Assembly: GCA_028753945.1 (NCBI GenBank)
Contig: JAPNXP010000001.1
Location: forward strand, 16,544,501 to 16,608,500
Direction of reading: 5' to 3'
Source: Hexactinellida sp. DTS-2022
Taxonomy: Eukaryota > Porifera > Hexactinellida
DNA length: 64,000 nt
The position numbers were made by a program, and so were the translations under genes. Every line of letters begins with the position of its first letter. The first letter of the stretch is position 1. The notes below the pieces were generated by a model. It was not told the origin of the DNA and made no database searches. It saw nothing but the letters and a program-made list of their open reading frames with translations. Positions 15,895 through 57,689 of this stretch are shown one piece after another.

Positions 15895-16914
15895 CTACTT
15901 TCCGTATATCCTAGCATGATACTTCTTGACAATTTGATGTACTTTGTTGTTAACTTTATTGAGATTGCGTTTCTGATTCCAATACTTGTATGCACTTATA
16001 ACTATAAAATATATGTAGTTGAAGTTGAATAGTATTCTATACAGTAGTTGACAAAATGTAATGGGCCATACTACAAGGAAGTGTGCGTAATAAACCCGTT
16101 GACTGTAGTCGATTAATCCAAAATAGTACAGGATCAAATAGTAATCGAAGAAAATTGAAATTACATTGATGAGGTTATAAATTGTTAATGGAATTACAAC
16201 TAGTAAAGTGGCTATCTTGAAATGTCTGCAAATAAATTTAGTTTCAAAATATATTCTTCTACTCACTTGCAACATTGCTTCATTTTCTCTACTCTTCAGA
16301 TGTTGGTAGAAACGTCTTGAGTACCAAATATAGCAAATGAGATCGATTATACAAAAAATCATCAATAGTACTCTATTTAGTGACCGAACTATTTCATATT
16401 CTGCAATGGAATTTTCAAAGTAGTATCTTATCAATTGATAGAGGATATTCATTAATATAATTCTCAGTATAATGTACAATATCCACCTCATAATGGTATA
16501 TTTGTAATTCCAATTGAGATAAGCTAACCACAAGACATCCATAGTCATACAGAGCATCGGGATCAAGCTGTATTTAGAGATGAATCTAACATGGTTCAGG
16601 ATTGTCCATATCTGTTCATTACCATGTGACAAATAAATTATTCGATCGATTAAAATAGAGCCATTGTTTGTAATTTCTATCAAAATGAGTATTATGATGA
16701 GATTCACGATTATCACTTTGAGTTTTAAATTCTTAAGATCGGTCTTGTAGTTTTCAAACACCAATTTATCAAGAGGAATACTTTTTATTTGCGAATACAA
16801 GCGATACTTTATTCGTATATAATAGAGAAGTATTGGTAACGCAAACAAACAGAAGGATAAACACACGAATGATTCTGCTATTGATAAAAAATCGTCAATA
16901 GTTTTAAATTCCAT
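15895..16914 (-). CDS. Putative seven-transmembrane protein, paralogue 1 (339 aa)
   Basis: An uninterrupted ORF dominated by hydrophobic segments at about residues 14-33, 65-83, 114-134, 142-162, 181-199, 233-255 and 278-307, so seven membrane helices are likely. The N-terminus is short with no separate signal peptide. The C-terminal tail is short, basic and helical. It is clearly related to the ORF at 56613-57689: shared blocks include YKYTIMRW, VLWLAY and YSRRFYxHLKSRExEA before helix 6. The tail pattern (QKR, then VN, then Y near the end) also recurs in the partial ORF at 63590. No DRY, NPxxY or insect gustatory-receptor TYhxxxxxQF motif is visible, so it cannot be placed in a known receptor class. 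A receptor role is inference. The start is the only Met near the open start of the frame. Confidence 0.7.
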   Translation of the reverse strand: MEFKTIDDFLSIAESFVCLSFCLFALPILLYYIRIKYRLYSQIKSIPLDKLVFENYKTDLKNLKLKVIIVNLIIILILIEITNNGSILIDRIIYLSHGNEQIWTILNHVRFISKYSLIPMLCMTMDVLWLAYLNWNYKYTIMRWILYIILRIILMNILYQLIRYYFENSIAEYEIVRSLNRVLLMIFCIIDLICYIWYSRRFYQHLKSRENEAMLQVSRRIYFETKFICRHFKIATLLVVIPLTIYNLINVISIFFDYYLILYYFGLIDYSQRVYYAHFLVVWPITFCQLLYRILFNFNYIYFIVISAYKYWNQKRNLNKVNNKVHQIVKKYHARIYGK

Positions 16915-18392: not shown

Positions 18393-18980
18393 TGTCAATA
18401 CTAAGCGCTTTATTCTTTATCAGATTTTCTAAAGATCGGAATGTAAGGATCGAAATTTGTTGAAAAAACGATCGTAATTTCCAATTAGCATACTTGTTTA
18501 CTTATAATACCCGTTGAAAGCTAACTTTAGGTTGATTTTGAATTTTCAATAATTTGTCTACCTTTTTAAAGAAATAACATTTATGTAGATCGTCTATTTC
18601 TAGACCAGGTTTTCTTACATATCAATTAGTATTACCCATAGACGTTAGGGCTTTTGGTCTACAGAATCTATAGACAGTTTACAAATTTTGGCTTATTTGT
18701 ATGGACCTTTATAGACCGTCTAGAACTAGACCGTCTACATATAAGGATCTCCTTTTTAAATTCGATAAAATATATTAAATTCTGACTGGGATACATCAAC
18801 CTGTGCTTCTCTGTATTAGAGTGAGATTCGAGTTATAGCATCTAATATAGAAAGTTTTCTCGATTATCAAGAGGCTCTAATGACAAGTATATGTATTTTG
18901 TGTAAACGGGGCGTCAATTATTCAATTTTCAGAAATTATAACTTTATTGAATTTCTACGTTTATTTGTGGTTCATTACTT

Positions 18981-18995
18981 TTCATTCATTTCCAG
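18981..18995 (+). promoter_or_regulatory. Candidate 3' splice acceptor before the Eph start codon
   Basis: A pyrimidine-rich TTCATTCATTTCCAG sits just upstream of the ATG at 19000. It suggests the mRNA starts in an upstream 5' UTR exon, and that the upstream in-frame extension (from 18880) is intronic. Confidence 0.4.
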
Positions 18996-18999
18996 CAGA

Positions 19000-21885
19000 A
19001 TGTTAGGTAGAATCTCTACGTTATTACTGCTTCTCTACCTCGTTTCCTATCTGCACTTATCTCCTGCAATACTGACTGACTGCTCAAATACTATTTTTCC
19101 AGATAACTCAGTTACAGTGTTCAACTCCCGTACATTCAATGAAATACAACCTGATAATACAACAGATAGTATTCCCATTCCCGGATGGACTACGTTTGAT
19201 CAAGATGAACAATCTTATCCAGTTATGGGAAGTAATCTTAATACTACAATAATGCTGGCAGTAACAACTCAGCAAGGAGATTGTAGTCCAGAGTATACTC
19301 TGTGTGTTAATACTGATTTATTTACACCGATACCAAATGCAGAGAGGAATTGGATATTGACCAGCTACTACGTAACAGAAGCTAACAACATAGAATTAAG
19401 AATACAGTGTACTTCGTTTAGTTCATTTAACATAGACTGTCGGTCTGCTATCAGAGCATACTACTACGAATCAGATGAGGACATAATGAATGTCTCCTCT
19501 CTCATTGGCCAGTTTACTCCAACTCAGGCATTTAATGGGACTGCTGGTGATGGATTCGTCTATTTTACATTCACAAAGAGTAAATCCGGATTTGTCGTTG
19601 GATTCCTTATCACTAATTATTGTATTCTTATAGATAACTTCTTGTTCTACTACTTCCAGTGTCCAACAGTTAATAACTCTCTATATTCTCTCAATGCTAC
19701 TCTTGCGCCTAACTCAACTCAAGAACCTACAATTGTTCCTGTCAATTGTCCGATCAGATCACAGCTGATGTCGCTATCATTTGGTAAGTGCTATGCCAAT
19801 GGCACCTGGTTCGTCCAAATAGACGGTCTGTCATGTGAGTGTGTGCCTGGAGCGTTCTTAGACAGTACTTCCTGTTCTCTATGTCCTACTGATAACTTCA
19901 AACAAGCATTTGGGAATAATGCCATGTGCATACCTTGTCCGACTAATAGCAACACTAACGGGAACCTAGGGGCACTAGAGTGTGTGTGCGATGTAGATTG
20001 GTTTCGCGGAGTAGGAGATAACGTGACTGAGTCCTGTGGGAGGAGTCCCTCAGCTGTACGGAACATACGGATAGTTAGACCTGATGTAGGTCCTGTTGTT
20101 ATGTGGGAGATGCCTGCTTTTCTGGGGAACAGGGGTATAGAGCTTCTATCTTACAGGGTTTCTTACTACCGAACAGTTGGCTCTGAGAATAGCTTTATGT
20201 ACTATACCACTGATACTCAGTACAACTTTGGTAATACTCTGGAGAGCAGCACTGAGTATGTAGTTGTAGTAACGTCACTTAATACAATCAACAATGTGTC
20301 AGGTGTGTTTAACGATGTCTCTATTTCTTTCGTATCCTCCTTCCCTGTTCTCACACTCTCTCAGTCTGATAGGTACTTAGTCTGGAAGTATACACTCTAT
20401 GCAGTGAATTCGTATCAGTTCCAGATAAGGTATAAAAATGTTACCACCGGTGTTATTGAGGTATTGAATGTGAATACAAGCACATGTAGCCTTCTCAGTG
20501 GGTATACGAGGGTGTGTAACGTGTCTATCTCTAACTTTGAACTAATATCTATATCACTACTGGATCCATCTGGAACCATATCCATGTCATACAGTACCAC
20601 TATGTCACTCAATTTATACTACATTATAGCAGGAGTGGGCGGATTTCTAATAATTGTTCTGTTGATACTGATATTTTGTTTTTGTTGTGTAATCTGCTGC
20701 TGTAGAGGTAGGAAGAGGTACGAACTAAAAAATAAGGAATCTGAATCGATTCCTCTCCACGCGCAGCTCTACCAGGACCCCAGTTTATATGAAGACCTCA
20801 ACAAGGCCGTGAGAGCTCTGGCTAAAGAGATAAATCCGGATGAGATAGTGAAGGAATCTATAGTAGGAGTAGGAGAGTTCGGAGATGTCTGGAAGGGGTA
20901 TCTCATTCGTCACGAACGGAAGATACCTGTGGCTTTAAAAATCCTTAAACCCGCTTCAACCGATAAAAACAAGGACGACTTCATCAAAGAAGCATCTGTT
21001 ATGGGACAGTTCAGTCACCCCAATGTTATATTCCTATACGGAGTCACGATACGGAAACCAATCATGATAGTCACTCCCTTCATGCAGAACGGGTCTCTGG
21101 ACAAGTACCTCATCAGTAATATGAATAATATCCCTTTCGATCAGCTGGTAGCTCTGTGCTACGGAGTGGCACGTGGAATGGTGTACCTTTCCCTCCTCGG
21201 GTTTGTGCACAGAGATTTAGCCGCAAGGAATATCCTCCTTGACAAGGATTTAACTCCGAAAATTTCCAACTTCGGATTGTCACGCGAGACGGAAGAGGAC
21301 TTCTACCGGGTGCAAACCGGTGGTAAGATTCCGGTGAGATGGACCGCCCCTGAAGCGATCCTCTACCGCAAGTTCAACACTGCTAGCGACATGTGGAGCT
21401 TCGGAATCCTTATGTGGGAAGTCATGTCATTCGGACAGACCCCGTATGGTGACACGGATAACTTCACCATTATGGATGAGCTGCAGAAAGGTTACCGTCT
21501 CCCAGCTCCCGACAGATGTCCCTCTGTGATCTACACCCTCATTCTCAGCTGCTGGAACAATGCGCCCGTGGAGAGACCTAGTTTCGCTGACATCCAGCAA
21601 TCTCTTTTACAGATCATAGACACCAACAGGTTACACCCCTCCGCCACGAACATTTATTCTGATTCACCGAATCCACTTAACCATGCCACTCTGGAGTCGT
21701 GGCTAACTTCCCTCAAACTTGAGAACTACGCTGTTAACTTCCGAGACAAAGGATACAGTCAGATAGCTTCTGTCTGGCGAATGTCTGAAGCTGAGTTATA
21801 CGATATCGGCATTATATTAGTAGAGCACAGGAACAAAATACTGTCCAGCATCCATCGTGCTAACAATCATCTATGCATAATTTAG
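19000..21885 (+). CDS. Eph-family receptor tyrosine kinase with Asn in the DFG position (961 aa)
   Basis: Domains in order (numbered from the Met at 19000): signal peptide 1-25; ephrin ligand-binding domain ~35-222 with the family pattern NWxLxS..., a C-x-AIRAYYYESD block and SGFVVGF...C; Cys-rich region ~245-345 with the Eph-like CxCDxxWFR and SPSAVRNI junction; two fibronectin-III-like segments ~350-535; one membrane helix ~540-569; juxtamembrane tyrosines Y591 and Y597 in LYQDPSLYEDL; kinase ~616-880; SAM ~897-955. Kinase motifs: glycine loop G623-x-G625-x-F-G628, lysine K647, HRDLAARN with D739 and N744, and activation segment with a Tyr and KIPVRWTAPEA. The DFG aspartate is Asn (SNFG, N757), which should weaken Mg binding. 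It is a cell-surface receptor presumed to bind ephrins. The whole coding region is one open frame, unlike the many exons of bilaterian Eph genes. An in-frame extension to 18880 is disfavoured because the signal peptide begins at 19000. Confidence 0.93.
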   Translation: MLGRISTLLLLLYLVSYLHLSPAILTDCSNTIFPDNSVTVFNSRTFNEIQPDNTTDSIPIPGWTTFDQDEQSYPVMGSNLNTTIMLAVTTQQGDCSPEYTLCVNTDLFTPIPNAERNWILTSYYVTEANNIELRIQCTSFSSFNIDCRSAIRAYYYESDEDIMNVSSLIGQFTPTQAFNGTAGDGFVYFTFTKSKSGFVVGFLITNYCILIDNFLFYYFQCPTVNNSLYSLNATLAPNSTQEPTIVPVNCPIRSQLMSLSFGKCYANGTWFVQIDGLSCECVPGAFLDSTSCSLCPTDNFKQAFGNNAMCIPCPTNSNTNGNLGALECVCDVDWFRGVGDNVTESCGRSPSAVRNIRIVRPDVGPVVMWEMPAFLGNRGIELLSYRVSYYRTVGSENSFMYYTTDTQYNFGNTLESSTEYVVVVTSLNTINNVSGVFNDVSISFVSSFPVLTLSQSDRYLVWKYTLYAVNSYQFQIRYKNVTTGVIEVLNVNTSTCSLLSGYTRVCNVSISNFELISISLLDPSGTISMSYSTTMSLNLYYIIAGVGGFLIIVLLILIFCFCCVICCCRGRKRYELKNKESESIPLHAQLYQDPSLYEDLNKAVRALAKEINPDEIVKESIVGVGEFGDVWKGYLIRHERKIPVALKILKPASTDKNKDDFIKEASVMGQFSHPNVIFLYGVTIRKPIMIVTPFMQNGSLDKYLISNMNNIPFDQLVALCYGVARGMVYLSLLGFVHRDLAARNILLDKDLTPKISNFGLSRETEEDFYRVQTGGKIPVRWTAPEAILYRKFNTASDMWSFGILMWEVMSFGQTPYGDTDNFTIMDELQKGYRLPAPDRCPSVIYTLILSCWNNAPVERPSFADIQQSLLQIIDTNRLHPSATNIYSDSPNPLNHATLESWLTSLKLENYAVNFRDKGYSQIASVWRMSEAELYDIGIILVEHRNKILSSIHRANNHLCII

Positions 21886-41900: not shown

Positions 41901-43702
41901 ACCACCACCAAAATATAGTGCCACCAAAGGAACATGCGTCGGCACAGCTGCAATTTTGGATTTTTTTTATTATTATTATTATTTTTTTTTTTTTATTTCT
42001 CCGTAGCAGGTGCCCTGGCCACACCTGTATACATTGAGGGCTGAAAATTGGCATGTAGTTGCGGAGGGACCGTGTAATTTGCACCTGGGGTTACGAATTT
42101 TTATTAAGAAATTTTTGACACATCTTTAACACCTTTCAAAATTTGTCTGGTCCATAACTCAAAATATGTTTTAATAACCCCAAAATTTTATTTCATATTT
42201 AGATTCATCTTAAAATTCTGCGTCTGATGGGAGAAGAAAATTTGTTAAAATTGGTTTAATTTCTGCCATTAATGGGGGTTGAAATTTCTTTGTTTACTCA
42301 CACTTCAATTTCAATAAAACTGTGAAATCTAATTCCATTGTTTCAACTTGTAATAATTATATTGATTTAATTTGTTAAATCCTACTCTAGTGATTCAACT
42401 TGCGATAATTATATTGATTTAGCTTATAAATTCCAGCTGGCTTCTATTTAATTCTAGTATTACTATACAATGGATTAAATAAAATAATATAATACAAGGA
42501 ATTTGTTGACTCAACTCAACCAACCATGGATAACATTGCTTAAATAAATAACTATTAATATAACTTATTATCAATATATAATGAATGAATGGCAGTAAAC
42601 TAAAGATGGTTTACGGTAGAAACAAACTTCAAATTTATCTACCATTCCTTGTGACTCGGACCAATTAACAAATGGTTTTTGACACCTTGAGGCGTTGATG
42701 ACTGGGCGAAAAAAAATCCAAAATTGCAGACTGTGCCGACAGCATGTTCCTTTGGAGGCACTATCAATAAACAAACAACAAAATATAGTGCCACCAAAGG
42801 AACATGCGTCGGCACAGTCTGCAATTTTGGATTATTCTTTCTCCGTAGACGGTGCCTTGACCACACCTGTATACATTGAGGGCTGAAATTTGGCATGTAG
42901 TTGCGAAATGACCGTATAATTTGCACCTGGGGTTACGATTTTGATCAAATAATTTTAACACCTATTTAAACTAATTATGGCTCATAACATGAAATAATTA
43001 ATATTGAGCTTGATAAAATTTACACATACGGATAGAGAATTAATCTCTACACCTTTTGGCAATTCACAAATGTTCAATTTAGCCTAGGTTTGTGCCATAA
43101 TTGGGGTGCCAATCTCCTGTGTTTCCTCACACTTGAGATTCAGTAAAACTGTTAAATCTAATTCTATTGTTTCAACTTGTAATAATTATATTGAATCTTA
43201 TTCTATTGTTTCAACTTGTAATAATTATATTGATTTAACTTGATAAATCTTTCACTATTGTTTCAACTTGCGATAAATATATATATTTAACTTATAAATT
43301 CCAGCTGGCTTCTATTTAATTGTAGTATTACTATCAATGGATTAAATTAAATTAAATAAAATATGGAATTTGTTGATTTACTCATTCACCGTGGATAACA
43401 TTGCTAAAATAAATAACTAATAATATAATTTATTATCAATACATAATGAATGAATGGCATTAAACTCAAGAAGGTTTATGATGTATACTAACTTCAAATT
43501 TATCTACCTTTCCGTGTTACTCGGACCAATTAAGAAATGGTTCTTCACACCTTGGGCGTTCATGACTTGGCGAAAAAATAAATCCAAAATTGCAGCCTGC
43601 GCCGACAGCATGTTCCTTTGGAGGCACTATCAATAAACCACCAACAAAATATAGTGCCACCAAAGGAACATGCGTCTGCACAGGCTGCAATTTTGGATTT
43701 TT

Positions 43703-44220
43703 TATTGGTAAATTTAATTGAAACCAAGGTTGCAACCAAATAGTTCAATATTCGGTTTGACCAACCTTGATACTAATGATACAAGCTGAAACAATTAACA
43801 ATACTATTATAAGATTCCAGCGTATTAATATTGGTTAAATGATTCTGAATTTCGTAAAATTAGATAGGGCAAACAATTTTAATAGGTAAATTAAATTGAG
43901 ATGCTGATTTGGAAATTGGACTTTCAAAGTTAGAATAATAAAATTTATTGTTGTTGTTGTTGTTGTTTACAAAATGGGCAGACAGCTGAATGGAAATTCA
44001 AAATGATCTTATGGCTGAGCAGGTTCTGCAAATAATCATATTAATAAAACAAATAAAATTCCATTACTTTCCAGTTAATTAATTAATACCACAACAACGT
44101 AGACGTGCTTTGATATTCTATAGTTACACAATTACACAATTGTCAAAACACAATTATAAGAAAGAGTCAGTATTAAATTAAACAAAGAAAAATTATTCTA
44201 ATTGTGACACAACTAACCAA
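43703..44220. other. Gene-free stretch upstream of NHL gene 1
   Basis: It includes a (TTG)n tract at 43950 and a fragment of the ~141-bp repeat family. Homology to the other NHL gene begins at about 44221. Confidence 0.4.
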
Positions 44221-44360
44221 GAAAAATTCCCTAACTTTCCAGGTATCACCATAGCAACCATTGACGTACTTTGGTATTCTCAGGTTACACATGTATAAGG
44301 TAGATCTGTATTAGATTAATTATATTATTTGAATAAACTCAATTCGTAACTGAACCTAAA

Positions 44361-45596
44361 ATGGCCACTAATATGCCTACAAATGTTATTTCCGATAAAA
44401 TGGCACATTTCGACAATGTCGCCACTATAATTCACCAAACATTTGATTCCCTAATCGATCAGCTGATCGCGAGGAGGGACGCTCTCCTCCAGAGGGTCCG
44501 TGAGCTGCGAGAGGACCACACGAACAAAGAAGCCACTCGTATCGCTGCCATAGAAGAACTGGAAAGGGTACAGCAACAAATGATGGAAATGAGCATAAAG
44601 GTTAACCCAAACCTAGAGTTCCATGAACAAGCCAAACAAGCCTACCAACAGGGCATTAAGAAACTGGGACCATCTGCCACATTCCTATGTCCAGTCTTAA
44701 GTTGTCAAAACACGGACACAATCCGACAGCTGATATCCGAGCTAGGAGAGATAGTCCCGTGTGAGATACCGGACTATTCTCTCAAGCGAGAACCGGTATT
44801 AACAGCTGGGAAGTATGGTGCAGGTGCTAATGAGTTGAGAGCCGAAGGAATAGCATTCGATGAATCCACTGAGCTAATGTACGTAGCAGATTATGGAAAC
44901 AGTCGTGTGCAAATAGTGTCGTTAAAGGGAGAGTTTGTGGCACAATTTCGGAATGATAAGCTCAGGTATCCATGGGGAATAGTTGTTAACAAAGAGTCCA
45001 TACTCGTAACCGACAGATATCACCATGCATTGTTACAGTTCCGAAAGAAAGATTCCAAGCTCATGAACAGAACTGGAACTGAAGGCAACAAGGAAGGAGA
45101 GTTTAACCGGCCCCGTGGACTCTGTATCGACACTAACGGAGATGTGTTAGTTGCAGATAGCGACAACTACAGAGTATGTGTATACTCGAAACTTCTCAAA
45201 TTCAAGTCCTGCATCGGAATAGGACAGCTGTTTAGCCCTAGAGACGTTAAGCTGTCAGCTGATCGAATCGTGGTGCTAGACTGGAGTCCCAAATGTGTCC
45301 ATTTCTTCTCTCGAGAAGGACACCCCCTCAGTTCCTGTGTCTCTCTAGGGAAAGGGAACAGTTTGGTCGCTATCCCTTCCTTCTTCTGTTTGGACTCCGC
45401 TGGCAATATTATCATTAGCGACCGTGAGACTAATACCATCATGATATACACTGAATCTGGAAAGCATATTCACACCTTGGGGAGGGAAGGGGAGGGAAAG
45501 GGAGAGTTCATCAGGCCCTGTGGAGTTTGTATTTCCAAATTAGGAATTATTTGTGTTGTGTCCGATAATCCTAATTATCCTTTGCAATGTTTCTAA
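44361..45596 (+). CDS. Coiled-coil and NHL-propeller protein 1 (411 aa, TRIM-like without RING)
   Basis: Residues ~28-78 form a charged coiled coil; residues ~145-411 form about six NHL repeats (VADYGNSRVQIVSLKGEF, RPRGLCIDTNGDVLVADSDN and similar), so a six-bladed beta-propeller is expected. NHL propellers bind RNA or protein, in TRIM/LIN-41/Brat-like proteins among others. There is no RING or B-box, so ligase activity is not expected. An almost identical gene lies inverted at 50306-51547. Homology extends ~140 bp upstream of the ATG and includes CTAACTTTCCAGGTATC, a possible splice acceptor. Differences between the two proteins fall mostly in loops of one propeller face. The ligand is unknown, and intracellular location is inferred from the lack of a signal peptide. 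Confidence 0.88.
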   Translation: MATNMPTNVISDKMAHFDNVATIIHQTFDSLIDQLIARRDALLQRVRELREDHTNKEATRIAAIEELERVQQQMMEMSIKVNPNLEFHEQAKQAYQQGIKKLGPSATFLCPVLSCQNTDTIRQLISELGEIVPCEIPDYSLKREPVLTAGKYGAGANELRAEGIAFDESTELMYVADYGNSRVQIVSLKGEFVAQFRNDKLRYPWGIVVNKESILVTDRYHHALLQFRKKDSKLMNRTGTEGNKEGEFNRPRGLCIDTNGDVLVADSDNYRVCVYSKLLKFKSCIGIGQLFSPRDVKLSADRIVVLDWSPKCVHFFSREGHPLSSCVSLGKGNSLVAIPSFFCLDSAGNIIISDRETNTIMIYTESGKHIHTLGREGEGKGEFIRPCGVCISKLGIICVVSDNPNYPLQCF

Positions 45597-46040
45597 TTTG
45601 TTTGTTTTCATTATTTGTTTATTGATTGGTTCTATTAATTAAATGTCGCAGTAGGAATAAGAGTTAAACTGTAATTCCGTCCTATTAATCCTGAGTTTAA
45701 TGCGAAGAAATTTATTAACTGGTGGCTTTATTAAGCGGAGTATACTGTATATTGAATATTTAATTATCGATCAATTTACCCCTTAGGGATAGGGGCAATC
45801 ATTTGGGTTAGGCAATGATACGAGAGTGGGCTAATAGTCGAGTGAATACAGTATTTCAATTGTTACAGAATATGGGTTTAAATACATGATCTGGAAATTG
45901 AAACTATTTAAGGTGAGTCACTAAATGACTTATTTGTCGATGTTAGTAGCATGGAATCACCTCCAGTTGGTGTCGCTAATATGGAACCCAAACTTAACTT
46001 GGTTTCTTATGTTGCCCAATTAATAAATTCATTTCAGGGA
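45597..46040. other. Gene-free stretch after NHL gene 1
   Basis: It holds a scrap of the CCGCTTAATA MITE family (TATTAAGCGGAGTATACTGTA near 45729) and nothing else recognisable. Confidence 0.4.
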
Positions 46041-46160
46041 AATCTAAAATTACAGCTGTGCCGACAGCATATTCCTTTGGAGGCACTATTTTGGTGATTG
46101 GTTGATTTAAAGTGCCTCCAAAAGAACATGCGGTCGTCACAGCTGTAATTTTAGATTTTT
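46041..46160. repeat. Diverged hairpin of the array family with matched changes in both arms
   Basis: The arm AATCTAAAATTACAGCTGTG pairs perfectly with CACAGCTGTAATTTTAGATT. Compared with the array consensus (AATCCAAAATTGCAGCTGTG), both differences occur on both arms, so pairing is preserved. Confidence 0.75.
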
Positions 46161-46239
46161 TCTTAAATGAATATAAGTTGTGATCTGCCATAATGATGTC
46201 ATCATTACTATAAAGATGTTTAACCATTTCAGGTGTTTC

Positions 46240-46376
46240 GCAGGGCCGTAGCCACTGGTTAGGTTGGTCAGGTTTCAACCTGACCACTTTTGGTTGATTA
46301 ATTTCCCAATATGGCACCACTCGGTCAGGTTGGTCAGATTAACCTAACCACTTTGATTTTGGTGGCTACGGCCCTG
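46240..46376. mobile_element. hAT-like MITE, TIR CAGGGCCGTAGCCA
   Basis: The ends CAGGGCCGTAGCCA and TGGCTACGGCCCTG are exact inverses, and TTTCG flanks both sides. The interior repeats GGTTGGTCAGGTT. Confidence 0.8.
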
Positions 46377-47170
46377 TTTCGGGGTTACTAATGTTATGGG
46401 CTAAAGTTGCATCTTCTATAACAGAGTCACAATCTGTTTTATAAAGTATTTTCTTAATGTCTACTTTTCGCGCAGAACGTGAAAAATGTTGGATCATAAT
46501 AGCGTGGGAAGATTTTTTCCCAAACTGGCGATATCTTGATAAAAGCCGCGAATTTGAGAACATTAGCACGAACTCTAAAACACATATAGATGTGTCACCA
46601 AGGAATGTATCCTTCTCATGTCCACTGTCTGTTTGTGTTAAACTTGTTATTGTTGTTATTTCGAAAATTCTAGTGATACCCTTACCATCGATGTAATTAA
46701 CTGATAGGATTAAGCATAGCCTACTCTATATATGGCCTGACAGTAGATGTACCAGGGATGCACAAGAAGATGGGAAATTTGAATGTTTTAATGTTTTCTA
46801 TATTGAACTACTAAGTTCTTCATACGTCTCTAGGTCGTAAACAAACTCAGCCCTGCTAGCCCGTGACTAGTATTAGCTGTAATGAGAAGGGTGATTGGAT
46901 TTTCATAATTTAATAGTAATAATAAACACAAACAGTACAATTTCTAATATTAATATACAGTGAATAATACACAATTATTCGCTTTCTTTCCTCTCTCCTC
47001 TTTCTCTCTCTGGCTCTAGCAGTGACACACGACACACTTAACTACATAATAGAAATAAGAATAAACAGTAGTACAAATCATGGTAAATACAAATAAGTAG
47101 ATACATAATTAAGAGAATTTCTTAAATTTACGCTTCTATACTTTTTGAAAGAACCAGCGAGTTATAATTC

Positions 47171-48944
47171 TTAACTTTGTTTGCAAGAAAGCAATTCGCT
47201 ACAGTAAAGACGAGCTTCGATAAGATGTTTCCCACTAAAACACACCTCAGCTAATACAAGTAGACTTCCAAATACTGTACTTGGATCACGATTATCGCTA
47301 TCTTCCAAATACATCAACGTGAGTTCAACTAGTATTTTTCTAGAAGGTCCACTTACAAGCTTCGCCAACAGCTCTTTATTGTTTTCGATGGCACTAAAGG
47401 TCTTCCATATAACAAATAAGGAATTTAAAACTGGCTCAGATGGATATTTAAGTCCGCCACGGTCCTTTAGCTGCAGAAGTTTATACTGAGAGTCCAGGTC
47501 TAAATCAATGAGAAATTATTTATCAACTGTTAGCATATGTAGCAGACATGACACGGTTTTGTTTGTTTCAGGTACTGATGGACAGAATAGCCTGCAATAA
47601 AGGATAATGATTGAAGCAACTGTGAACCACAATCAATTGTTGATAGATCATTAATCTCATCAAGAAATGGCTCCAAATTGAACTCACCATCAGTAGTGGA
47701 ATACGCTATACGGACAAGAAAATGACTTGACAAATGACTGAATAGATTGAAAGGAGTGTCTTGTTGGTCAGTATATATGTTTCATATGCTAGAAAGTTTA
47801 AGTCGACGCTCGGTTCAAGGATTTGAAGATAGGACAATACAAGCATGTCTAAAACTGGTGTATGTTTGTTTACTAAGTTTGCCAATTTTTTCTGGTAAAG
47901 TTTGCCAAGCATCTAACCAAAACTACACGAGTCAAAAATCGAAATCGCTCGTCATTAAAAGTCAAAGGTCTAGAGAAATTATCGTTCAAACGTATTCCTT
48001 TAAGAGAATACTTATCCACCGATCATCAGCGTTTGTATTAAAAAACCTCGCTTTTTCTACCGATTGTTTTTTTTATGTTTATAAAAAACATCATCGGTAG
48101 AAAGTAGCGAGGTTTTTTAATACAAACGCCGATGATCGGTGGATAAGTATTCTCTTCCTTTAAATGGTGTGTTAACGTTGAATAATTTCCAAACAGTAAG
48201 AAGGGTATCAACAAGCTCAGGAGTATTATTTCTATATTCTGGATAACGCAATTCGTTCTGGATAGTTAGCACAGATATTGTTAATTCGTTAACGACTTTT
48301 AAAACCAGTTTGACATTTTGACGCTCATTGCTAGACGGAAAACATGACTCCATAGTCAAATGAGGAGCTAACTTGGATAAACTTGTTCTTTCTGAATTAT
48401 ATAATTGACATACATCTTCAAAGGATGCACAACCGAACTTAAGGAACCACACCAACCAACTATTAAGTAAACAAATCAAGGTTAACTTATCTTTCAAGTC
48501 CTGTGGAGAGTTACCACAAACTTCTCTTTCTCTTGACTCTCGGATCTCAAGCTGAGTTGTAGTGTTTGGTTCATCAATTAATCCTCTTTTGCATCGTATG
48601 AGAAGCGATTCCGTTTGTTAGGTTTGGATGAGTAATATGCTGGGCAGTCAGACAGTAAACTTGGTACAGCGCCTTCCTTCAGCTTTGGCTTCGCCGTACT
48701 TCAGTAAAAGTACCATCTCCTCTTGGGACTTGGAAAGTGTAGTCTATGTCTTCTTTCTGAAAATGGTTGATACATACATACATAGACCACCTTCAGGTCA
48801 CCGATATCCTCGCGACGAAGAGCGCATGTCCAACCATGATTCAGGATTGGTGGATTTTGAGGCATCTTGAACACAGGAACATGGTCATGTCTCATGTGGG
48901 TTGTAATTGCTCTTGCAACCGGGGACAGAACACGAGTTAGGCAT
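47171..48944 (-). pseudogene. Broken P-element/THAP9-like transposase
   Basis: Reading from 48944: an N-terminal THAP zinc-finger (CSVPGCKS, then VPVFKMP, WTCALRRED, VCINHF, and the AVP box LKEGAVPSLL). It is cut by frame changes near 48898 and 48665 and followed by a stop near 48565. Next, 48497-48117 has the family's KLAPHL, VKLVLKVV and LFNVN-type blocks. Then 47912-47530 is open but changes frame near 47760, and 47499-47171 has the DRGGLKYPSE motif near the C-terminus. AG acceptors precede some blocks (near 47912 and at 47500), so the live ancestor probably had introns. Multiple frame breaks and an internal hairpin make it non-functional. Nuclear DNA cutting and joining was its ancestral role. 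Confidence 0.75.
48002..48156. repeat. 64-bp near-perfect hairpin inside the transposase relic
   Basis: 48002-48064 and 48093-48156 are reverse complements with very few mismatches around a ~28-nt AT-rich loop that extends the stem. The right arm overlaps coding blocks of the relic, so the left arm is an inverted copy of its own coding DNA. Confidence 0.85.
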
Positions 48945-49202
48945 GAATAGAAGCTAATATGAATAAAATACCTAAGCGAAATTGAAAGCATGAGATTTTA
49001 CGTCAATAGAAGAGTTTTGAATAAAATCTGATCAATAATTGTATATATTTCAAGTATATTTCTAATTAATGTGGTTGATTATTATTATTATTCTAGATAT
49101 TAAATATTGTGGTTGGATAAATATTACCATCTTCTCCTTCATCCTTGGTCCACATTTTCTAGGTTACTGTCAGGCCATATATAGAGTAGGCTATGGATTA
49201 AG

Positions 49203-50290
49203 TAACATGAAATAAAAGTGTTACTGTCATTAGTATAATATGATACACTTCGAATTTCAAATATAAATACTTATCGAGACAACAACTAGCTTTAATATCT
49301 CTAAACTTAACCGTAGAAAGTTGAATATCAATTCAAACGCATGTCGCTCTCTTAACATATCATCTTAAAGCAGTGTGGCGTATACAAATTGCTTTCAGTC
49401 ATGCTGGAAGTTTGTTCGTTCGAATCATCTTTTAGTGAATAATAATCGCGGGTTTCGCAATTCCCAAATGGAAAACCTCAAAATAAGGAAGTGGAAATGA
49501 GGAAAACCCACACGATTAAGTTAAGTATAAGTACGGTTGGTATTGTAGATCATACGATGATACGAATTTACATAATGAATAAAAAACGTGCAAGTATATG
49601 CCTTAACAATAACTAAAGTAACTTTTGAATACAAACAACAACAACAACAACAACAACAACTCTCCCATTTGTAGTCACAGAGACAAAAAGGTATACATAG
49701 GAATTGGATAGTTGCAACTATAGAAATGCTATGGAATATAGTTAGCTTTATAGTGGTCCATTATACTCAAATGTACAGAAATTAAACGGAATTAATTTTA
49801 CACAATCACAAGGTTTCGTCTTCAGTTTACTGAGGTATTATGTGATATAATTTTAGGAATTTTGTGCAAAAAATTTTTGTAACATTTTATAGATTCAACA
49901 GGTGGAAGTGAATTTTAGGCCATAGTTGATGGAAAAGTTGCATAATACGTGAATTTTCTCTCATATAATACGTATAACATGTATTAACGTAGTATACGTA
50001 CATATTTTAATCATAAACAACTGAAAATATAAAGTAATTTAGCATGTAAAATATTTTATTATATGACGAAGGGGGGAGTAGGAAAATGAACAAGGGGAAA
50101 AGAGTTAAAATAAGTTTACAATAAACTGATTATATATTAGATTATTCTACTTCTGTAACTAAGAACATGTTTTGGCTACCACCCTTCGCCCCTTGGAAAC
50201 GTTACGTATAATTTGAATGGTCTCATATATGATATTTTAAACAAAAACAGTTTCATTTGACAAATATTCAGTCACACATTTTAATATAAT
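49203..50290. other. Gene-free stretch with a (CAA)n microsatellite
   Basis: (CAA)n at 49634-49660. No gene or transposon end recognised. It precedes the 3' end of the minus-strand NHL gene. Confidence 0.45.
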
Positions 50291-50305
50291 CAACAAATAA
50301 ACAAA

Positions 50306-51547
50306 CTAGAAACATTGCAGAGGATAGTTGGGATTACTGGATACAACACAAATAATTCCTAATTTGGAGATACAAACTCCAAAGGGCCCAATAAACTCTC
50401 CCCTTCCCTTCCCTTTCCTTCCCAAGGTGTGAATATGCTTCCCAGATTCCGTATATACTTTGATGGCATTACTCCCCCAGGCGCTAATGATAATATTGCC
50501 AGCTGAGTCCAAACAGAAGAAGGAAGGGTCAGCGACCAAACTGTCCCCTCTCCCTTTAGAGACACAGGAACTGAGGGGGTGTCCTTCTCGAGAGAAGAAA
50601 TGGACACATTTGGGACTCCAGTCTAGCACCACGATTCGATCAGCTGACAGCTTAACGTCTCCAGGTTCATGCAGCTGTCCTATTCCGATGCAGGACTTGA
50701 ATTTCAGGAGTTTAGAGTATACACACACTCTGTGGTTGAAGTTATCTGCAACTAACACATCTCCGTTAGTGTCGATACAAAGTCCATAGGGACCGTTAAA
50801 CTCTCCTTCCTTGTTGCCTTGAGTTCCAGTTCTGTTGATGAGTTTGCAATCTTTCTTTCGGAACTGTAACAATGCATGGTGCCCTTTGTCGGTTATGAAT
50901 ATTGACTCTTTGTTAACAGCTATTCCCCATGGATCCCAGAGCTGATCATTCCTGAATTGTGTCACAAACTCTCCCTCTAAAGACACTATTTGCACACGAT
51001 TGTTCAAACAATCTGCTACGTACATTTGCTCAGTGGATTCATCGAGTGTTATTCCTCTGGCATTCAACTCATTAGCACTTGCACCTCTTCCTAACTTCCC
51101 AGCTGTTAATACCGGTTCTCGCTTGAGAGAATAGTCCGGTATCTCACACGGAACTATCTCTCCTAGCTCGGATATCAGCTGTCGGAATGTGTCCCTATTT
51201 TGACACCTGAAGACGGGACATAGGAATGTGGCAGATGGTCCCAGTTTCTTAATGCCCTGTTGGTAGGCTTGTTTGGCCTGTTCATGGAACTCTAGGTTTG
51301 GGTTAACCTTTATGCTCATTTCCATCATTTGTTGCTGTACCCTTTCCAGTTCTTCTATGGCAGCGATACGAGTGGCTTCTTTGTTCGTGTGGTCCTCTCG
51401 CAGCTCACGGACCCTCTGGAGGAGAGCGTCCCTCCTCGCGATCAGCTGATCGATTAGGGAATCAAATGTTTGGTGAATTATAGTGGCGACATTGTCGAAA
51501 TGTGCCATTTTATCGGAAATAACATTTGTAGGCATATTAGTGGCCAT
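50306..51547 (-). CDS. Coiled-coil and NHL-propeller protein 2 (413 aa)
   Basis: Same architecture as the gene at 44361. The first ~110 residues, including the coiled coil, are identical or nearly so. The NHL part keeps framework strands such as LCIDTNGDVLVAD, DVKLSADRIVVLDWSPKC and YTESGKHIHTLG. It differs at loop positions (DCLNNR for DYGNSR, WDPW for RYPW, NGPYG for NRPRG, NFNHR for SDNYR, AWGSNAIKV for DRETNTIMI). Upstream homology continues to about 51689, including the GATACCTGGAAAGTTAG segment. The pair is an inverted duplication about 4.7 kb apart. Both are intact, so both are probably expressed. Confidence 0.88.
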   Translation of the reverse strand: MATNMPTNVISDKMAHFDNVATIIHQTFDSLIDQLIARRDALLQRVRELREDHTNKEATRIAAIEELERVQQQMMEMSIKVNPNLEFHEQAKQAYQQGIKKLGPSATFLCPVFRCQNRDTFRQLISELGEIVPCEIPDYSLKREPVLTAGKLGRGASANELNARGITLDESTEQMYVADCLNNRVQIVSLEGEFVTQFRNDQLWDPWGIAVNKESIFITDKGHHALLQFRKKDCKLINRTGTQGNKEGEFNGPYGLCIDTNGDVLVADNFNHRVCVYSKLLKFKSCIGIGQLHEPGDVKLSADRIVVLDWSPKCVHFFSREGHPLSSCVSKGRGDSLVADPSFFCLDSAGNIIISAWGSNAIKVYTESGKHIHTLGRKGKGRGEFIGPFGVCISKLGIICVVSSNPNYPLQCF

Positions 51548-51949
51548 TTTAGGTTCAGTTACGAATTGAGTTTATTCAAATAATATAATTAATCTAATAC
51601 AGATCTACCTTATACATGTGTAACCTGAGAATACCAAAGTACGTCAATGGTTGCTATGGTGATACCTGGAAAGTTAGGAAATTTTCTTGGTTAGTTGTTT
51701 CTACTATGACTCAATAGAATAATCTGGAATTGTTTATCGGTTCAAAGTAGTGTTTACATTTTAAAAAAATATCCCTATTTGCCACAAACAACAGTTTCAA
51801 TTCTTATCCTACAAGATCAATATTGTGTTTGCCAAACTATAGTTCATTCATGATTAGAATTATACGATTTAATGCAAAGAATCCTCGTATTTAGCATTTT
51901 ATTTGAATCACAAGTTGGAAGTCAAGCCTTAAGTTAATTGCAAATTGTA

Positions 51950-52559: not shown

Positions 52560-53000
52560 GGCCATAATTAGTTTAATTTTCGGTAGAAACAAACTTCAAA
52601 TTCATCAATTGATCATAATGCCACGGAACACTTATTGGTCTTAACACCTTGAGGTGATGATTACAACAAAAAAATGTGTTTTTCTTTTTGTGAATTTTAT
52701 ATTTCGAATGTGTTGGTTGGCGTTGGGAGAACACCCAACATGCACAGAAAAAATGCTGACTCAAAAGTCAAAACCTATTATCTTCTACTGAAACTAGGAT
52801 ATTTCTGAAATGAAGTGAGTTAAAAGGAAACTTCCAACACACTAGGGTAGTTTCCGTCCGAAACACCTTTCTGAAATTGATTAACACCTTTATGGTGACG
52901 ACATACAACAGGTCTATCAAACCACCAACCACCAAAAGATAGCGCCTTCAAAGGAACATGCGGCCGGCACAGCTGTAATTTTAGATTTATTTATTATTTC
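52560..53000 (+). repeat. Partial array unit with a half hairpin
   Basis: It resembles 32190-32650 of the hairpin array (TGAGGTGATGA, GAAACTTCCAA, CACCTTTATGGTGA). The 5' hairpin arm is largely lost; the 3' arm (GGAACATGCGGCCGGCACAGCTG, AATTTTAGATTTA) remains at about 52950-52992. Confidence 0.6.
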
Positions 53001-56612: not shown

Positions 56613-57689
56613 TTAATGATAGCATCGAGAGTAGAGTTCTTCGTGGTACTCATCCACAATAGGACGGATTCTATCGTTCACTCGAGTCAATCGGCGTTTC
56701 TGTCTACAATACTTGATTATAATAACACAAATTACATACAAATAATCCATATTCAACACAAATCTGAATGTCATCAAACAAATGACTTGGGGTAGTTGTA
56801 GATATGCCTCCAATACTTTATTTACAATGCAATTATTGAAATAATAAAAATCCAAGTATGGTCCTTTAATATTCAAACTCAAGTTCGAAAGAGCATAGAA
56901 GAAGAAAGCAATAGTGACAGGTATAGTTGCCGTCTTGAAATGAATTCGTACAAACTTTCTTTCAGTATAACTTTCCCTATCCATGAATAATCTAGCTTCC
57001 AATTCCCTACTTTTCAAATGCAGATAGAAACGGCGTGAATATACTATATACGTAGTGAGGTCGATGATAATGAACATAGTGTTTCCTATGTTGTTCAGAA
57101 AATTTCCAATTACATAAACTAAATATTCATATATTGGAGTACAGTGTTGTGATTCTGTACCTTGGGAATACAATAGCGTATTGACAAACTCCCATCCGTG
57201 AACACAGATAATGAATAGCAGAGATCTCAACAACATGTATGCAACCCACCTCATTATTGTATACTTGTAGGAAATGTTGAAATATGCAAGCCATAAAACT
57301 TTTAGAAACATACAAAGTATAACAATATAATATTGGAGTGAAAAGCATATTAATATGTTGAGAATAACGACCTTTGTTGTTATTTGACTTTTCAATGTTT
57401 CAAACCAGCATATAAAATATAGTATAAATATGCTTGAGTGATTAACTATCTCTACTAAGAGGATTACAATAATAAAATTCGATATCATAACCTTAATTCT
57501 TAGATTCTTCATATGGTTTTTAAAATTTTGGTTCCACAGTTGTTCTGGTGTGATCTCCTTTATTTCTAAACTGAGGTAGCACCTCTTGCGTACGTAATAG
57601 ATTAGAACCATTGTGGCAAGGATACAAAATGTGAATATAAAAATTAGAGTTACTGACTCCATTACCTTCTTTAGAACAGCAGGATCCAT
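56613..57689 (-). CDS. Putative seven-transmembrane protein, paralogue 2 (358 aa)
   Basis: Hydrophobic segments at about residues 13-32, 66-93, 105-135, 144-164, 187-217, 250-270 and 297-325 suggest seven helices. Shared with paralogue 1 (15895-16914): a hydrophilic first loop (KNLRIKVMISN vs KNLKLKVIIVN), VLWLAYFN, YKYTIMRW, YSRRFYLHLKSRELEA, RKFVRIHFKTAT and a tail of the form KYCRQKRRLTRVNDR...EYHEELY. Conservation is strongest in the loop between helices 5 and 6 and in the tail, the usual effector-coupling parts of a 7TM receptor. The ligand and coupling partner are unknown. The single-exon frame starts MDPAVLKK. Confidence 0.7.
   Translation of the reverse strand: MDPAVLKKVMESVTLIFIFTFCILATMVLIYYVRKRCYLSLEIKEITPEQLWNQNFKNHMKNLRIKVMISNFIIVILLVEIVNHSSIFILYFICWFETLKSQITTKVVILNILICFSLQYYIVILCMFLKVLWLAYFNISYKYTIMRWVAYMLLRSLLFIICVHGWEFVNTLLYSQGTESQHCTPIYEYLVYVIGNFLNNIGNTMFIIIDLTTYIVYSRRFYLHLKSRELEARLFMDRESYTERKFVRIHFKTATIPVTIAFFFYALSNLSLNIKGPYLDFYYFNNCIVNKVLEAYLQLPQVICLMTFRFVLNMDYLYVICVIIIKYCRQKRRLTRVNDRIRPIVDEYHEELYSRCYH

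What the first reader, a model, noticed from the sequence alone, without database searches (positions are those of the whole stretch)
44361..51547. Duplicated NHL proteins differ mainly on one face of the propeller
Seen: the two proteins are nearly identical in the coiled coil, in strands and in AB/CD turns. Differences cluster before and at the PxG turn (RYPW/WDPW, NRPRG/NGPYG, FSPRD/HEPGD, IRPCG/IGPFG) and after VAD or IIS (DYGNSR/DCLNNR, SDNYR/NFNHR, DRETNTIM/AWGSNAIK). In beta-propellers these are the DA and BC loops, which lie on the same (top) face that binds ligand in Brat and LIN-41. Inference: the framework is conserved while the binding face diversifies, as expected of a recognition-protein family.
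Basis: partly seen in the sequence, partly recalled or inferred. Interest (0 to 1): 0.78.

Follow-up and report, generated by a model that had tools for sequence, protein, structure and literature searches.

The report
Hypervariable binding face on NHL propellers
An animal genome carries hundreds of genes for propeller-shaped NHL proteins, and in the 53 copies compared in detail a conserved frame carries a binding face that differs in almost every copy and shows strong positive selection, as expected of a repertoire of recognition proteins.

Summary
Observation confirmed. The two genes (44361-45596 +; 50306-51547 -) belong to a subfamily with 53 intact copies, among roughly 333 NHL loci in the genome, fragments included. 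Of 52 A/B substitutions, 31 lie in 88 top-loop (DA, BC) residues, 2 in 48 bottom-loop residues. Ten RNA-contact residues listed for the homologue LIN41/TRIM71 map onto four repeat positions per blade; the 24 equivalent sites here have pN/pS 2.74, the other NHL sites 0.42; in 26 disjoint pairs 2.96 and 0.52. A second subfamily varies at the same places. Silent rates at these codons are ordinary, so selection rather than targeted mutation explains them. A compact promoter is shared by most, not all, relatives examined. Best reading: a germline-diversified, probably intracellular recognition repertoire on an NHL scaffold without RING or B-box. Ligand and effector are unknown. The coiled-coil identity of A and B is partly recent common origin, since even silent sites match there.

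The parts
44361..45596 (+). Copy A: intronless CC-NHL gene, 411 aa
   Evidence: ORF; NHL Pfam 7e-30; PDB best hits TRIM2/TRIM3/TRIM71 NHL
50306..51547 (-). Copy B: intronless CC-NHL gene, 413 aa, inverted relative to A
   Evidence: ORF; NHL Pfam 3e-21; inverted-repeat arms with A, 89% and 97%
44213..44302 (+). Conserved core promoter block of A (-148 to -59): CCCTAACTTTCCAG, X-box-like ATCACCATAGCAACC, CRE-like TTGACGTA, CTTTGGTATTCTCAGGTTACA, TATA-like box at -67 (motif names recalled)
51606..51695 (-). Conserved core promoter block of B
44361..44795 (+). A, residues 1-145: helical N-terminal region (helices 8-51, 57-81, 85-101, 118-127), no RING or B-box match
   Evidence: AF2 DSSP (low pLDDT there), Pfam
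44796..45593 (+). A, residues 146-411: six-bladed NHL propeller carrying 25 of the 26 strongest positively selected sites of the subfamily
50309..51112 (-). B: NHL propeller with a different set of face residues (23 of 25 strong NHL sites differ from A)
   Evidence: strings, compared by eye; alignment

Best explanation
The two genes are members of a large germline-encoded family of proteins made of an N-terminal helical (coiled-coil) region and a six-bladed NHL propeller, without RING or B-box. Shown: the framework is under purifying selection, while about four positions in each blade, equivalent to the ligand contacts of LIN41/TRIM71, are under strong positive selection, so that the 53 intact copies carry 52 different faces. 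Shown: gene units with a shared ~90-bp promoter block have spread over the genome by tandem and dispersed segmental duplication. Inferred: the proteins are cytosolic and act as a repertoire of recognition proteins (immune or other non-self recognition). Each copy binds a different, probably protein or mixed-chemistry, ligand with the propeller's top face, and the coiled coil dimerises to give avidity or to recruit a partner that supplies the effector function.
For: 53 intact copies, no two identical in DNA; roughly 333 NHL loci on all 18 contigs, but only 20 B-box matches. 46 of 411 sites have P(beta>alpha)>0.9; 26 have beta>4 and P>0.95, against 0 (tree null) and 2 (shuffled null) of 411, one simulation each. 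10 of 10 listed LIN41/TRIM71 contacts map to P-1, P+1, D+1 or D+2; 18 of the 24 equivalent sites here are strong, against 7 of 242 others, Fisher 1.4e-17. 26 disjoint pairs: N 547, S 36 in the register; binomial p 7e-14 against neutrality; 0 of 20000 random 24-site sets reach the observed pN; of 13 register shifts only shift 0 exceeds 1.1. Second subfamily: 16 of its 19 most variable columns are sites with P>0.9 in the first. pS in the register is 0.161 against 0.159 elsewhere, so mutation is not locally raised. Palette at strong sites Y 15%, R 12%, W 6%, F 6%; framework Y 2%, R 3%, W 0%, F 5%. Promoter block kept at 80-91% identity in 9 of 9 fetched members of the second subfamily, and at 78% in L065.
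Against: No ligand, expression or challenge data. No relative outside this genome could be searched. The promoter block is not recognisable in L066. Seven N-terminal sites (13 with per-segment trees) also score P>0.9, so diversification is not confined to the propeller face. Under shuffling of copies among segments the site method gives 19 of 411 false positives at P>0.95, so weaker sites are unreliable. D+2 sites 309 and 403 do not vary, and P+1 site 205 and D+1 site 219 are only weakly supported. One pair (L014/L017) shares the same face. The face chemistry is also compatible with RNA in many copies.
Confidence: 0.66

Rival explanations
1. A repertoire of sequence- or shape-specific RNA-binding proteins, as in Brat and LIN41, diversified against transposon or viral RNAs or to regulate many mRNAs.
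For: LIN41/TRIM71 and Brat bind RNA with the corresponding surface (passages); the hypervariable register is the LIN41 contact register. Aromatic and Arg residues are enriched.
Against: Net charge over the 24 sites ranges from -3 to +7, median +2; 8 of 53 copies are negative, B among them. Acidic residues make up about 9% at the strong sites. TRIM2/TRIM3, the best sequence matches, are judged unlikely to bind RNA as Brat does in PMC9634614 (passages).
Confidence: 0.22
2. Allorecognition: the copies and their alleles label individuals, and the face diversity serves self/non-self discrimination, as in the HNWD WD40 propellers of Podospora.
For: HNWD propellers show the same combination of a conserved repeat framework and four hypervariable codon positions per repeat under diversifying selection at the predicted interaction surface (PMC12222747, passages).
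Against: No signal peptide or transmembrane segment is apparent by eye (no predictor was run); a cytosolic product needs a fusion or transfer route. No population data.
Confidence: 0.12
3. Artefact of recombination, saturation or relaxed constraint: old copies with degenerate loops give apparent dN/dS above 1.
For: Shuffled simulation gives 19 of 411 sites at P>0.95; framework polymorphisms are close to linkage equilibrium.
Against: Relaxation cannot give N in excess of S: pN/pS 2.96 in 26 disjoint pairs without any tree. Only 2 simulated sites reach beta>4, against 26 observed. Loops on the bottom face stay at 0.20-0.28. The same sites vary in a second subfamily.
Confidence: 0.04
4. A targeted hypermutation mechanism (as in diversity-generating retroelements) or templated gene conversion writes diversity into these codons.
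For: Hypervariable codons change mostly at positions 1 and 2 (heterozygosity 0.505, 0.522, 0.241), and position-3 nonsynonymous steps are rarer per opportunity (0.23 against 0.41-0.44). One group (L014, L017 against L048) has an upstream flank only about 1.5% diverged but pN 0.435 at the face.
Against: Synonymous change at the same codons is not raised. All four bases occur at positions 1 and 2 over the sites. Coding pS in the L014/L048 pair (0.109) exceeds the flank divergence, which points to an exchange breakpoint rather than mutation. Only 2 of 1377 pairs exceed the global threshold of a conversion-tract test, and a PHI-like test is not significant (136 of 1000).
Confidence: 0.06

Closest known systems
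TRIM-NHL proteins (TRIM2, TRIM3, TRIM71/LIN-41, Brat, Thin, Mei-P26)
   Same: NHL propeller; best PDB sequence matches; same contact register as LIN41. PMC9634614 (passages) also describes a diverse top opening among human TRIM-NHL domains.
   Different: No RING, B-box or filamin domain matched; single exon; many paralogues; face under diversifying selection. PMC2533329 (passages) ties positive selection to SPRY-bearing group 2 TRIMs; that NHL-bearing TRIMs are in group 1 is recalled.
finTRIM (fish) and TRIM5alpha B30.2 domains
   Same: Expanded TRIM-derived family with positive selection mostly in variable loops of the ligand-binding surface (PMC2657112, passages).
   Different: Scaffold is B30.2/SPRY with RING and B-box, not NHL; here the selected sites repeat with the blades.
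HNWD NLRs of Podospora (het-d, het-e)
   Same: Propeller framework conserved, four codon positions per repeat hypervariable and under diversifying selection at the predicted interaction surface (PMC12222747, passages).
   Different: WD40 repeats in a NACHT NLR with a HET effector; diversity attributed to unequal exchange of repeats within a gene; fungus.
Coral tachylectin-2
   Same: Beta-propeller of an early-branching animal with positive selection (PMC2880987, passages).
   Different: Five-bladed lectin, partial sequence; its 12 selected sites coincide with no known sugar-binding residue.
Large innate repertoires (zebrafish NLR-B30.2; lamprey VLR, snail FREP, sea-urchin 185/333)
   Same: Many copies or variants with diversified recognition surfaces (zebrafish NLR paper PMC4852459 seen in the listing only; the others recalled).
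   Different: Different scaffolds; most are secreted, membrane-bound or NLR-fused (recalled).

Membership tests
NHL six-bladed propeller | NHL repeats, six blades with N-terminal closing strand | tested here: met
   Pfam NHL 7e-30; strands of six blades with 147-149 as closing strand in AF2, strand D of blade 4 not assigned (moderate confidence); Foldseek could not be run
TRIM proteins | RING finger and B-box before the coiled coil | tested here: not met
   No RING or B-box match in either protein at E<=1; the conserved promoter block lies directly upstream of the ATG; only 20 B-box matches in the genome
TRIM-NHL by descent | Closest relatives are TRIM-NHL domains | tested here: inconclusive
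   Best PDB matches are TRIM2, TRIM3, TRIM71, but no tree against other NHL proteins was built
Diversified recognition repertoire | Positive selection concentrated on the ligand-contact surface of many paralogues | tested here: met
Diversified recognition repertoire | Binding of diverse non-self ligands, induced or constitutive expression in defence | not testable with these tools
   No expression or binding data held
NHL RNA-binding proteins (LIN41/Brat type) | Basic or aromatic RNA-binding face | tested here: inconclusive
   Net charge -3 to +7, median +2 over 24 sites in 53 copies
Diversity-generating retroelement-like target | Base-specific mutagenesis of target codons with raised synonymous change | tested here: not met
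   pS at the sites 0.161 against 0.159 elsewhere; all four bases at positions 1 and 2

The most novel reading that the evidence does not exclude
An animal without an antibody system has built, on the NHL propeller, an intracellular germline repertoire of many binders with about 24 paratope-like positions each (Tyr/Arg/Trp-rich) on a fixed frame. Copies of at least two subfamilies share a compact promoter; in the subfamily studied it holds an RFX-type X-box next to a CRE-type site, so the repertoire may be switched on together. It would be a recognition scaffold not previously described as hypervariable.
Probability: 0.45. Interest if true: 0.86.

Novelty: new variant of a known kind. Interest (0 to 1): 0.76.

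Why it matters
NHL domains are known mainly as developmental or RNA-regulatory modules (general knowledge). Here the same contact positions that bind RNA in LIN41 have been turned into about 24 free positions on a conserved frame, in a large gene family. If these proteins recognise microbes, viruses or non-self cells, this is an unrecognised intracellular recognition repertoire in an animal. It comes with a natural library showing which positions of an NHL propeller can be varied, and such a propeller could serve as a designed-binder scaffold. It makes the question of how animals without antibodies achieve specific intracellular recognition directly testable.

Tried and rejected
Gene conversion as the source of diversity: framework sites are near linkage equilibrium (mean r2 0.025-0.077 by distance bin), but the PHI-like test (136 of 1000) and a GENECONV-like test (2 of 1377 pairs over the global 5% threshold) give little support. 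A star-like radiation with recurrent changes would explain the low linkage as well (inference). Some mosaicism remains likely: A/B framework divergence by segment runs 0.039.027.103.067, 0.115.103, and flank and coding divergence disagree in L014/L048.

A mobile-element explanation for dispersal: not favoured; 48 of 53 copies share at least 250 bp of collinear flank with another copy, which fits segmental duplication. Five copies have no such partner among those fetched.

Codon-position bias as a sign of targeted mutation: not favoured, see rivals.

Circularity: sites chosen by entropy are biased, so the final tests use sites defined elsewhere (LIN41 contacts, NHL register, second subfamily). 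Note 4 says 17-18 of 19 columns for the second subfamily and 45 of 53 X-boxes; the counts are 16 of 19 and 46 of 53.

Rows dropped: of 57 near-full-length copies at 77% or more (A included), four were left out (L018, L046, L055 with stops; L057 truncated); fragments were not used. For the second subfamily 9 fetched copies were used of about 28 seen; L065 and L066 were aligned but not counted, L067 and L070 were left out. For linkage and conversion tests, codons with P>0.5 were excluded. The locus count used typed lists (100, 7, 2, 100, 72 and 147 places) merged when starts lay within about 1-2 kb; it includes fragments and any ordinary NHL genes.

Literature: searches. No listed title or abstract describes an NHL expansion or hypervariable NHL faces in sponges or other early animals; one search returned 0 papers. 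In PMC8242945 (passages) NHL occurs once, in a legend on receptor domain architectures of the sponge Halichondria panicea; I did not pursue it.
Full report
What was checked. The two ORFs exist as described. They are uninterrupted, 87% identical proteins with a helical N-terminal region and an NHL propeller. The window lies on contig C1 of a 112-Mb genome in 18 contigs. It is an animal genome: the window also encodes an Eph-type receptor kinase.

The differences. Against loops from DSSP of the AlphaFold2 model of A, the 52 A/B substitutions lie in DA loops (19 of 61 residues), BC loops (12 of 27), AB loops (0 of 24), CD loops (2 of 24), strands (15 of 124) and the N-terminal region (4 of 145). 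The model was built from only two sequences and has mean pLDDT 65.7, with ten-residue blocks of 161-320 at 77-93 and of 321-411 at 42-81. Its strands agree with the NHL repeat register that I had set before the model was available.

The family. A search with A found 57 near-full-length copies (A included; the others 77-88% identical) on twelve contigs, with a cluster at C1:13.67-13.80 Mb, and more distant copies at about 47-58%. 53 of the 57 are intact and no two are identical in DNA. Merging the matches gives 333 NHL-family places on all 18 contigs, fragments and any ordinary NHL genes included. The merging is rough, but the search tool scores only the best candidates, so the true number is probably higher. 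Only 20 B-box matches were found in the whole genome.

Selection by site. A FUBAR-like grid analysis (own implementation, MG94-type model, FastTree tree) found 46 of 411 codons with P(beta>alpha)>0.9, seven of them in the N-terminal region, and 91 with P>0.9 for purifying selection; trees built per segment gave largely the same strong sites and more N-terminal ones (13 at P>0.9). 26 codons have beta>4 and P>0.95. One simulation without positive selection gave 0 of 411 such sites on the tree. One with copies shuffled among eight segments gave 19 of 411 at P>0.95 but only 2 with beta>4. Recombination can therefore create weak sites but hardly the observed strong set.

Independent definition of the binding face. 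PMC5908797 (passages) names ten human LIN41/TRIM71 residues, corresponding to fish residues that contact RNA, whose change relieved repression. A single numbering offset places all ten on the chain printed, and all ten fall on P-1 (4), P+1 (1), D+1 (2) or D+2 (3), counted from the PxG proline and the VAD aspartate of each blade. The 24 equivalent sites in this family hold 18 strong sites against 7 in the other 242 NHL sites (Fisher 1.4e-17), with pN/pS 2.74 against 0.42, while pS is the same (0.161, 0.159). P-1 is strong in six of six blades, D+1 in five, P+1 in four, D+2 in three; D+2 sites 309 and 403 do not vary. The seven strong sites outside the register are 152, 154, 202, 232, 241, 291 and 329, six in DA loops and one (232) in a bottom CD turn. 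Sliding the register by one residue drops the ratio to 1.06 or 0.80, no other shift exceeds 1.08, and 0 of 20000 random 24-site sets reach the observed pN. In 26 disjoint closest pairs, which need no tree, the register has 547 nonsynonymous and 36 synonymous changes (pN/pS 2.96), other NHL sites 0.52, N-terminal region 0.46. By loop class, pN/pS is 1.95 (DA core), 1.84 (BC) and 1.12 (outer DA) against 0.19-0.38 for strands A, B, C and AB and CD turns.

Replication. In nine fetched members of a second subfamily (about 57% identical to A), 16 of the 19 most variable columns are sites with P>0.9 in the first subfamily; the other three are 243, 244 and 314. Mean entropy at the 26 strong sites is 1.69 bits against 0.33 at other NHL sites. 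Sites chosen from the second subfamily have pN/pS 2.45 in the first.

Nature of the diversity. At the 25 strong NHL sites the 53 copies have 52 distinct strings, differing on average at 19.7 sites; only L014 and L017 match. Over the 26 strong sites the residues are Tyr 15%, Arg 12%, Trp 6%, Phe 6%, against 2, 3, 0 and 5% in the framework. Net charge over the 24 contact sites runs from -3 to +7 (A +3, B -1), so the faces are not uniformly basic. Codon changes are mostly at positions 1 and 2, but silent changes are not raised, which argues for selection and against local hypermutation.

Spread and regulation. 48 of 53 copies share at least 250 bp of collinear flank with another copy, which fits spread by segmental duplication. 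A ~90-bp block starting about 150 bp before the ATG is conserved: a 34-base piece occurs at 62 places with up to 3 mismatches (control 0), 30 of them perfect. By eye, most of these lie about 110 bp before a copy or fragment seen; C6:721423 lies further from its fragment and C6:4410573 I could not assign. The block is kept at 80-91% identity in all nine fetched members of the second subfamily and at 78% in L065, but not in L066. The control flank of A (-330 to -241) also scored above all shuffles in some of the nine; it overlaps a diverged second copy of part of the block that can be read upstream of A, so it is a poor control. The block contains an RFX X-box-like ATYACCATAGCAAC (46 of 53 copies by the pattern), a TGACG core (51 of 53) and a TATA-like box; these motif names are recalled, and binding is untested. 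By the same patterns the second subfamily and L065 lack the X-box match and TGACG, so only the block, not these motifs in full, is shared.

Caveats on A and B alone. Their first 72 codons are identical, silent positions included, so the identity of the coiled coil in this pair is partly recent common origin. Copy B is closer to L006 (C6) than to A in four NHL segments and shares about 1 kb of flank on both sides with it, so A and B are not simply each other's latest duplicates.

Conclusion. The strict statement shown is: strong positive selection, replicated in a second subfamily's pattern of variation, on the ligand-contact positions of an expanded NHL family. The biological role (immune, allorecognition or RNA-directed) is inferred and open.

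Noticed in passing
window 15895-16914 (-) and 56613-57689 (-): Two single-exon ORFs (339 and 358 aa) that look like paralogous multi-pass membrane proteins by eye, with no Pfam match; possibly an expanded receptor family.
   Followed up: partly
window 18880-21885 (+): Eph-type receptor tyrosine kinase with SAM domain in one uninterrupted 1001-aa ORF.
   Followed up: partly
window 46040-46158, with related copies near 43574-43706 and 52936-52988: Short palindromic MITE-like repeats (48-nt arms, 92%) flanking the gene pair.
   Followed up: no
window 48002-48156: Near-perfect 51-nt inverted repeat (98%) with a 53-nt spacer between the two genes.
   Followed up: no
core promoter blocks at 44213-44302 and 51606-51695: X-box-like and CRE-like sites stand side by side, an order that recalls the X-X2 boxes of MHC class II promoters (recalled, untested); a diverged second copy of part of the block lies further upstream of A (read).
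   Followed up: partly
G000 C17:293-511 kb and C6:897-1141 kb: Separate large clusters of NHL ORFs of about 410 aa, the full-length ones mostly 73-99% identical to L071; their variable sites were not examined.
   Followed up: no
residues 94, 113, 118 of the family (N-terminal region): A few N-terminal sites are also variable and score for positive selection, 113 only with a per-segment tree; perhaps partner specificity of the coiled coil.
   Followed up: no
L014, L017 and L048 (cluster C1:13.68-13.76 Mb): L048 shares an upstream flank about 98.5% identical with L014/L017, yet its propeller face is different (pN 0.435): a sign of exchange with a breakpoint near the coding region.
   Followed up: partly
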